Origin: Acidobacteriota bacterium
GTDB taxonomy: Bacteria > Acidobacteriota > Terriglobia > Versatilivoradales > Versatilivoraceae
Assembly (NCBI GenBank): GCA_022616615.1
Contig: JAKEER010000836.1
Coordinates: forward strand, 1 to 45,884
Direction of reading: 5' to 3'
Length of the DNA: 45,884 nucleotides
Position numbers and translations under genes: made by a program. Each line of letters starts with the position of its first letter. Position 1 is the stretch's first letter. The notes beneath the pieces were generated by a model. That model saw only the letters and a list, made by a program, of their open reading frames with translations, had not been told where the DNA came from and ran no database searches. Below are positions 7,023 to 40,151 of the stretch, in pieces.

Positions 7023-7181
7023 AATTGGCGCGGGTGCAATTAAAAGTGGCGGGCAGCCCGCAGCGGGCCGGAGCCCTTGCTGACGCGCGGGCTACTGACT
7101 GGCGCCGGCGGTGTCAGTAGCCCGACCGTGAGGGAGGGCTGCAGAGCTTGCCCGCCACTTTTAATTGCACCCAATTGGCGC
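7023..7181. repeat. MITE-like element, GGTGCAAYT-family, member 2, with perfect 9-base target duplication
   Basis: The element runs from 7032 to 7172. Its ends form a perfect 24-base inverted repeat that begins GGGTGCAATTAAAAGTGGCG. The flanking 9-mers AATTGGCGC at 7023-7031 and 7173-7181 are identical, which is good evidence of transposition. The 93-base core is GC-rich and itself self-complementary (AGCCCGC...GCGGGCT). It lies 130 bases upstream of the enolase-superfamily gene. Confidence 0.85.
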
Positions 7182-39760: not shown

Positions 39761-40151
39761 GGTGCAATTGAAACTGACGTGCCGAGACGTGCAGCAGCAG
39801 GAGGCCGGCGTTTCCCCGCTAGTAGTGCGCCACGCCCGTGGCGCTGAAGCCATTGATGTCAACTTAAGGTAGGACGGGCCCACGATTGGCGAAAAGCACG
39901 CCAATCGTGGCTACCCATGCCCTAGGCAGTCGTCTTGGTAGCCATGATTGACGCGCTTTCTGCGCCAATCATGGACGAAACCGCCTTAAGTTGACATCAA
40001 TGCGCTGAAGCACCCCCGCTCTTTACTAGATTAGAACAGGGGCGCGGAAGCACTGGCGTGCTTCACTACGAGCCTGAGCTCCGCTCTCCGCACAGGACGC
40101 CGCGCATCCGCAACGACCGTCAAATGATGTACGTAAGTTTCAATTGCACCC
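39761..40151. repeat. MITE-like element, GGTGCAAYT-family, member 3, split by a nested element
   Basis: GGTGCAATTGAAACTGACGT (39761-39780) and the reverse complement of GGTGCAATTGAAACTTACGT (40131-40150) differ at one base. They are close to the ends of the elements at 6787-6958 and 7023-7181. No target duplication is evident. The nested element at 39851-40002 interrupts it. The right end lies just before the vapB promoter, the left end just outside the CHAT operon promoter. Confidence 0.7.
39842..40011. repeat. Nested 152-base double-hairpin element with 9-base target duplication
   Basis: The element 39851-40002 has perfect 19-base ends CATTGATGTCAACTTAAGG and complement, and is flanked by CGCTGAAGC on both sides (39842-39850 and 40003-40011). 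Each half holds a hairpin of its own: CCACGATTGGCG with CGCCAATCGTGG, and CCATGATTGACGCG with GCGCCAATCATGG. The two halves are inverted copies of each other. Confidence 0.85.

What the first reader, a model, noticed from the sequence alone, without database searches (positions are those of the whole stretch)
39842..40011. Element within an element: a 152-base double hairpin inserted in a GGTGCAAYT element
The insert has perfect 19-base ends, an exact 9-base duplication (CGCTGAAGC) of the host element, and halves that are inverted copies, each with an internal CGATTGGC hairpin. Nesting gives relative ages: the double hairpin jumped later. On one strand it would fold to a two-armed cruciform, perhaps an RNA when transcribed.
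Basis: seen in the sequence. Interest (0 to 1): 0.55.

Follow-up and report, generated by a model that had tools for sequence, protein, structure and literature searches.

The report
Tiny transposon carrying two REP hairpins
The 152-base double hairpin is a small, many-copied jumping element whose ends match an IS4-family transposon in the same bacterium and whose body is two hairpins of another kind of mobile repeat (REP), and this copy landed inside a third mobile element.

Summary
A 152-bp insert (39851-40002) with perfect 19-bp inverted ends and an exact 9-bp duplication interrupts a 229-bp inverted-repeat element (39761-40150). The same genome holds 40 scored places of the element. Of 43 complete copies measured, 31 have an exact 9-bp duplication and 38 have at most one mismatch. 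Two host paralogues run straight through the empty site.

The insert is a non-autonomous MITE. Its ends (19 and 24 bp), 9-bp duplication and target type match a single 1647-bp IS4-family insertion sequence in the same genome. The closest named relative found (Nostoc, 53% protein identity) has nearly the same ends and a 9-bp duplication.

Each half carries a GTAG-tagged REP hairpin, GGTAG-CCACG...CGTGG. The same REP class occurs about 160 times without these ends in a related Acidobacteria genome; in another it flanks a RAYT transposase gene. About a third of copies sit at one fixed place in a different REP family, so REP-in-MITE-in-REP nesting is common here.

No evidence supports an RNA role. 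MITEs, REPs and REP-targeting insertion sequences are known; a DDE-transposon MITE with a REP pair as its body is a variant I found described only in outline.

The parts
39761..39850 (+). left part of the host element (GGTGCAATTGAAACT ends); includes the first copy of the 9-bp duplication
40003..40150 (+). right part of the host element; includes the second copy of the 9-bp duplication
39822..39844 (+). GTAGT + palindrome GCGCCACG..CGTGGCGC in the host element (REP-like); the insert sits at the foot of its stem
   Evidence: read; partial free copies at L199-L201 and L203
40047..40069 (-). second GTAGT-tagged palindrome of the host element; the two tags face outward
   Evidence: read
39842..39850 (+). 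target-site duplication CGCTGAAGC, left copy
40003..40011 (+). target-site duplication CGCTGAAGC, right copy
39851..39869 (+). left terminal inverted repeat CATTGATGTCAACTTAAGG
39984..40002 (-). right terminal inverted repeat; with the adjoining bases 24 bp of the family consensus are identical to the right end of the parent IS
39880..39915 (-). REP hairpin 1: GGTAG-CCACGATTGGCG..CGCCAATCGTGG
39937..39974 (+). REP hairpin 2: GGTAG-CCATGATTGACGC..GCGCCAATCATGG
39916..39936 (.). 21-bp spacer between the two GGTAG tags (tags face each other); related sequence occurs in a free REP array without these ends (L169)

Best explanation
The 152-bp insert is a non-autonomous MITE of an IS4-family insertion sequence. 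The DDE transposase encoded by the 1647-bp IS at G000:C618 (or a lost sister) most likely acts in trans on the shared 19-24 bp ends, cuts and pastes the miniature, and leaves a 9-bp duplication. Its body is not a decayed transposase gene. It is a head-to-head pair of GTAG-type REP hairpins with their spacer, probably captured from a REP array of the chromosome. The transposase prefers short GC-rich dyad sites (NGC...GCN), which occur in other REPs, so copies pile up inside repeats. The copy in the window landed at the foot of a GTAGT-tagged palindrome inside a GGTGCAATT-ended element. Shown: ends, duplications, copy number, empty sites, parent IS, REP identity of the hairpins, target bias. Inferred: mobilisation in trans, capture from a REP array, independence from a RAYT.
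For: Copies: 40 places in the genome (40 of 121 candidates scored); 69 + 66 ends at up to 2 mismatches against 0 + 1 for the control pattern. Of 43 distinct complete copies, 31 have an exact 9-bp duplication and 38 have at most one mismatch. Parent: the IS shares 19 (left) and 24 (right) terminal bp with the MITE consensus, has a 9-bp duplication CGCAGCGCG, and encodes a 415-aa protein, NCBIfam NF033592 IS4 at 170.7 bits against cut-off 115, Pfam DDE_Tnp_1, with Y..R...E......K at residue 294. A Nostoc plasmid IS with 53% protein identity has ends CATTGGTGTCAAGTTAAGG and a 9-bp duplication GACTTACTT readable in its flanks. REP identity: GGTAGCCACG...CGTGG hairpins number 49 + 52 in the window's genome, 81 + 81 in G004, 7 + 8 in G006 and 0 in G001, against 1 or 0 for controls. 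G004 and G006 have no such ends at up to 1 mismatch. In G006 a RAYT gene (NF047646, 107.2 bits against cut-off 80) is flanked on both sides by hairpins of this type, one with the same loop as MITE hairpin 2. Stems differ between REPs yet pair: 93% of cells against 72% after shuffling, 54 distinct hairpins. Source: TIR-free array L169 matches the MITE interior at 81% over 75 bp and 90% over 50 bp. Target: 25 of 38 duplications fit .GC...GC.; 13 of 43 copies sit at the same place in a GGTAG-GGACGCG REP.
Against: Only one transposase gene was found, and its activity is untested. The RAYT closest to this REP class was found in G006, not in the window's genome, where RAYT-like genes are distant (35-39% identity) and, where examined (C660, C444), sit among other REP classes. 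The REPs in the MITE face each other, whereas free pairs of this class mostly face apart. L169 could be a damaged MITE rather than its source. The assembly is a 918-contig MAG with 8% estimated contamination.
Confidence: 0.85

Rival explanations
1. An ordinary IS4-family MITE whose internal hairpins are merely old inverted duplications of its own subterminal sequence and only resemble REPs by chance.
For: The two halves are inverted copies at 73% identity, as an inverted dimer would be; internal palindromes are common in MITEs (recalled).
Against: The same GTAG-tagged hairpin class occurs in genomes that lack the ends, as outward pairs and beside a RAYT; the spacer also occurs in a TIR-free array.
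Confidence: 0.07
2. A REPIN or BIME moved by a RAYT as single-stranded DNA; the outer inverted repeats are incidental.
For: REP hairpins, GTAG tags and RAYT genes are present in the family.
Against: Exact 9-bp duplications in 31 of 43 copies, perfect TIRs, and an IS with identical ends, duplication length and target type point to a DDE transposase. RAYT insertions are not expected to leave such duplications (recalled).
Confidence: 0.04
3. A structured RNA gene or regulatory RNA inside a repeat.
For: Strong fold, z = -10.5 as DNA.
Against: No Rfam match above the gathering score (best 28.9 against 80 bits, a microRNA model); no terminator-like site; unpaired stem cells number 22 of 377 in the right hairpin and 6 of 348 in the left, against 24 of 551 in the ends (sums).
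Confidence: 0.03

Closest known systems
IS4-family insertion sequences and their MITEs (nearest named relative found: IS4-family element on Nostoc sp. C057 plasmid NZ_CP040290.1)
   Same: Transposase 53% identical, ends CATTGGTGTCAAGTTAAGG against CATTGATGTCAACTTAAGG, 9-bp duplication.
   Different: The MITE body here is a REP pair, not a remnant of the IS interior.
GTAG REPs, REPINs and RAYTs (PMC3733652 and PMC8266576: passages read)
   Same: GTAG tag next to a palindrome, many copies, inverted pairs, a RAYT gene flanked by the repeats.
   Different: Bounded by DDE-transposon ends with a 9-bp duplication; tags face inward.
GTAG-15 dimers inside long palindromes in A. variabilis (PMC3733652, section 7 read)
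   Same: REP dimers regularly enclosed in an inverted repeat.
   Different: That section gives no transposase, target duplication or empty site; here all three are shown.
Insertion sequences that insert into REPs, e.g. ISRm22 of the IS4 family (Tobes and Pareja 2006, PMC1525189: passages read)
   Same: An IS4-family element preferring REPs as targets.
   Different: Here the inserting element is a MITE that itself carries REPs of another class.

Membership tests
MITE | Short element with terminal inverted repeats and no transposase gene | tested here: met
   152 bp, 19-bp perfect ends
MITE | Target-site duplication of constant length | tested here: met
   9 bp exact in 31 of 43, at most 1 mismatch in 38 of 43
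MITE | Multiple copies and empty sites | tested here: met
   40 places; host paralogues L196 and L197 lack the insert
MITE | Autonomous partner with the same ends | tested here: met
   IS at G000:C618:21886-23532
MITE | Mobilised in trans | not testable with these tools
   needs a transposition assay
IS4 family (parent element) | IS4 transposase by profile | tested here: met
   NF033592 170.7 bits, cut-off 115; PF01609 54.4 bits, cut-off 23
IS4 family (parent element) | Y(2)R(3)E(6)K signature (recalled) | tested here: met
   YRRRWRIEEAFLLTK at 294
GTAG REP | GTAG tag at one foot of a palindrome | tested here: met
   GGTAG-CCACG..CGTGG, both hairpins
GTAG REP | High copy number outside any one larger element | tested here: met
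   81 + 81 in G004, which lacks the ends
GTAG REP | Association with a RAYT gene | tested here: met
   G006:C716, RAYT 107.2 bits, REPs on both sides; no close cognate RAYT was found in the window's own genome
GTAG REP | Binding and cleavage by the RAYT | not testable with these tools
   needs biochemistry
REPIN | Inverted pair in the orientation of free pairs of this class (tags outward) | tested here: not met
   tags face inward in the MITE

The most novel reading that the evidence does not exclude
REP units in this acidobacterial lineage have gained a second means of spread. Packaged between IS4 ends they are copied by a DDE transposase without their RAYT, and the vehicle in turn homes to REPs of other families. 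Several REP classes of the genome (GGACGCG pairs inside CTGTGAAAAAATT inverted repeats, GTAGT pairs inside GGTGCAATT ends) would then travel the same way, and the packaged hairpins might still be substrates of a RAYT.
Probability: 0.25. Interest if true: 0.65.

Novelty: new variant of a known kind. Interest (0 to 1): 0.42.

Why it matters
REPs are generally thought to depend on RAYTs for spread. A DDE-driven MITE with a REP pair as its body shows a route by which REPs can be copied without a RAYT, and explains how mosaic repeat islands (REP in MITE in REP in MITE) build up. It also gives a clean natural series (two, one or precisely lost hairpins) to study how palindromes decay.

Tried and rejected
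A scan of genome contigs with the transposase found no relative. The ends at up to 1 mismatch occur in 1 of 399 genomes of the class sample, the window's own, so wider spread of the MITE could not be shown. Extended dyad symmetry at the insertion centre was tested and is weak beyond the 9-mer (arms of 5 or more in 6 of 38 targets, against 8.6% of matched control sites); the bias towards REPs rests on the shared target class instead. Compensatory change inside the MITE copies was tested and is slight. Outer inverted repeats around free REP pairs: 12 of 33 pairs exceed the 99th percentile of shuffled flanks, 9 of 15 of the GGACGCG class but only 3 of 18 of the CCACG class, so most REPs of the MITE's own class are not packaged. 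The match in G056 (L062) is a 32-bp hit that I left out as a probable chance match. L100 holds a REP pair near an IS200-type transposase, not a RAYT by profile; I did not count it as RAYT association.

Counts: the 43 copies are the distinct end-to-end copies in loci held at that time, not all in the genome (one search counts 135 ends; only the first 100 were listed, and many copies are cut by contig ends). Sites with more than one mismatch in the duplication (5 of 43) were dropped before the target counts. Of the 13 of 43 copies in the GGACGCG REP, 12 have exact duplications; by eye L019 and L087 also belong there but the script's pattern missed them.

Not-in-print statement: six paper searches and three papers read in passages, one of them with one section in full, gave only the GTAG-15 dimers as a like case; subscription papers are mostly not held.

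Full report
What is there. The window is one contig (C280) of a 9.58-Mb, 918-contig assembly, 94% complete with 8% estimated contamination. Two members of its family, G004 and G006, hold REP-bearing contigs of the same length as the records named Acidobacteria bacterium gp11 AA57 and AA58, so the family is probably Acidobacteria group 11 (inference). At 39842-40011 a 152-bp insert with 19-bp perfect ends lies between two copies of CGCTGAAGC. It splits a 229-bp element with 20-bp ends, GGTGCAATTGAAACTGACGT / ACGTAAGTTTCAATTGCACC. The site is intergenic, between a CHAT/TPR protein gene and an ORF without a Pfam match.

Copies. The element matches 40 places in the genome, itself included (40 of 121 candidates scored; the best of the others is 97% identical). 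Its end sequence occurs 69 + 66 times at up to 2 mismatches, control 0 + 1. Among loci then held I measured 43 distinct complete copies: 29 of 148-163 bp (28 scored with two hairpins, L017 with one), 9 of 88-93 bp with one hairpin, 4 of 115-130 bp that lost one hairpin, and 1 of 239 bp that has itself been hit by a GGTGCAATT element. The 9-bp duplication is exact in 31 of 43 and has at most one mismatch in 38 of 43. The ends were found in 1 of 399 genomes of the class sample, this one, and the 152-bp query had no full-length match in the other 60 relatives searched.

Empty sites. The host element without the insert aligns at 90% over 189 bp with C414 and at 87.5% over 192 bp with C320. Both alignments run through the junction with a single copy of the target sequence.

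The parent. G000:C618:21886-23532 is a 1647-bp element with the same 19-bp ends and a 9-bp duplication CGCAGCGCG. Its right end shares 24 bp with the MITE consensus and its left end 19 bp. It encodes a 415-aa protein: NCBIfam IS4 family 170.7 bits (cut-off 115) and Pfam DDE_Tnp_1, with the IS4 signature Y..R...E......K (signature recalled). It is the only copy found in the genome. The closest plasmid-borne relatives are Nostoc IS4 transposases at 52-53% identity. In Nostoc sp. C057 the ends read CATTGGTGTCAAGTTAAGG, and GACTTACTT flanks both sides. A second, more distant Nostoc relative (41%) has other ends. This names the mobiliser independently of the assembly.

The cargo. Each half of the insert holds GGTAG followed by a CCACG...CGTGG stem-loop (CCATG...CATGG in hairpin 2 of this copy), with the two GGTAG tags facing each other across a 21-bp spacer. 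The pattern GGTAGCCACGN{18,34}CGTGG occurs 49 + 52 times in this genome, 81 + 81 in G004, 7 + 8 in G006 and 0 in G001, with controls of 1 or 0. G004 and G006 have none of the MITE ends. There the hairpins often form outward-facing pairs with differing stems. Across 54 distinct hairpins in held loci 93% of stem cells pair, against 72% when arms are dealt anew. In G006:C716 a RAYT gene (NF047646, 107.2 bits, cut-off 80) has such a pair on one side and a related hairpin (tag GGCAG) on the other; one of the pair has the same loop as MITE hairpin 2. In G004:C142 a remnant of the same RAYT (76% over 38 residues) lies beside the same REP. The window's own genome has RAYT-like genes, but the two examined sit among other REP classes: C660 (91.9 bits) among GGTGG-CGCAGACATGGC repeats, with one GGTAG-CCACG hairpin, and C444 (57.5 bits, below cut-off) between GGTAG-GGACGCG repeats.

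Origin of the body. Locus L169 (C538:25200-25530) is a REP array without MITE ends. It matches the MITE spacer plus hairpin 2 at 81% over 75 bp, and hairpin 1 plus tag at 90% over 50 bp, in an order that fits one period of an alternating REP array. The simplest reading is that IS4 ends came to flank one period of such an array. A damaged MITE would look similar, so this step is inferred.

Targets. Of 38 copies with a duplication of at most one mismatch, 25 fit .GC...GC., a pattern like the NGCTNAGCN preference recalled for IS10. The window's own site, CGCTGAAGC, fits only the left half of that pattern. In 13 of 43 copies the site is the same place in GGTAGGGACGCG(GTGCT)CCGCGTCC hairpins, a REP class with 47 + 48 intact copies, many as outward pairs at a fixed 44-bp offset. 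The motif .GC...GC. occurs 0.0087 times per base in 80,046 bp of loci around the copies, about 83,000 sites genome-wide by extrapolation. Some 100 REP sites would therefore attract about 0.1% of insertions if the motif alone mattered, against about 30% seen. Copying of already-hit repeats could inflate this; several different size classes in the same target argue against one founder.

Function of the hairpins. As single-stranded DNA the insert folds strongly, but among 29 copies unpaired cells number 6 of 348 (left stem), 22 of 377 (right stem) and 24 of 551 (ends), summed. Taken together the stems are kept about as well as the ends, not better. With no Rfam family over its threshold and no terminator-like site, I see no case for an RNA product.

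Novelty. Known from the papers seen: GTAG REPs and RAYTs; REP dimers inside long palindromes in A. variabilis (section 7 of PMC3733652); insertion sequences that choose REPs, including ISRm22 of the IS4 family (passages of PMC1525189). What I did not find in six searches is a DDE-transposon MITE with documented parent, duplication and empty site whose body is a REP pair. I file it as a new variant of a known kind.

Noticed in passing
G000:C170:7550-7788 (L049 1281-1519): Reverse nesting: a GGTGCAATT-ended element of about 150 bp lies inside a copy of the double-hairpin family.
   Followed up: partly
L013 1349-1472, L080, L174; L180 by eye: Hairpins lost with the same joint, GGTAG|TGG, in three distinct MITE copies, and a similar joint in a free REP pair (L180, read); palindrome slippage and enzymatic excision cannot be told apart.
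   Followed up: partly
L220-L234 (own genome): GGTAG-GGACGCG REP pairs (69 bp) sit inside larger inverted repeats, AGCTGTGAAAAAATT...; in 9 of 15 pairs of this class tested the outer repeat exceeds the 99th percentile of shuffled flanks.
   Followed up: partly
L104 (G000:C660:1-2907): A RAYT gene over the NCBIfam cut-off among about ten copies of a different REP class (GGTGG-CGCAGACATGGC and relatives).
   Followed up: no
L219 (G000:C444:9400-11300): A RAYT-like gene (57.5 bits, below cut-off) with GGACGCG REPs on both sides, perhaps the mobiliser of the REPs that the MITE hits.
   Followed up: partly
window 7033-7171: A second, different GGTGCAATT-ended element of 139 bp, of the type that interrupts the C170 copy.
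   Followed up: no
several contigs of G000 (e.g. C310, C805, C907, C193, C198): Contigs begin or end inside the 152-bp element, so the repeat breaks the assembly and copy counts are lower bounds.
   Followed up: no
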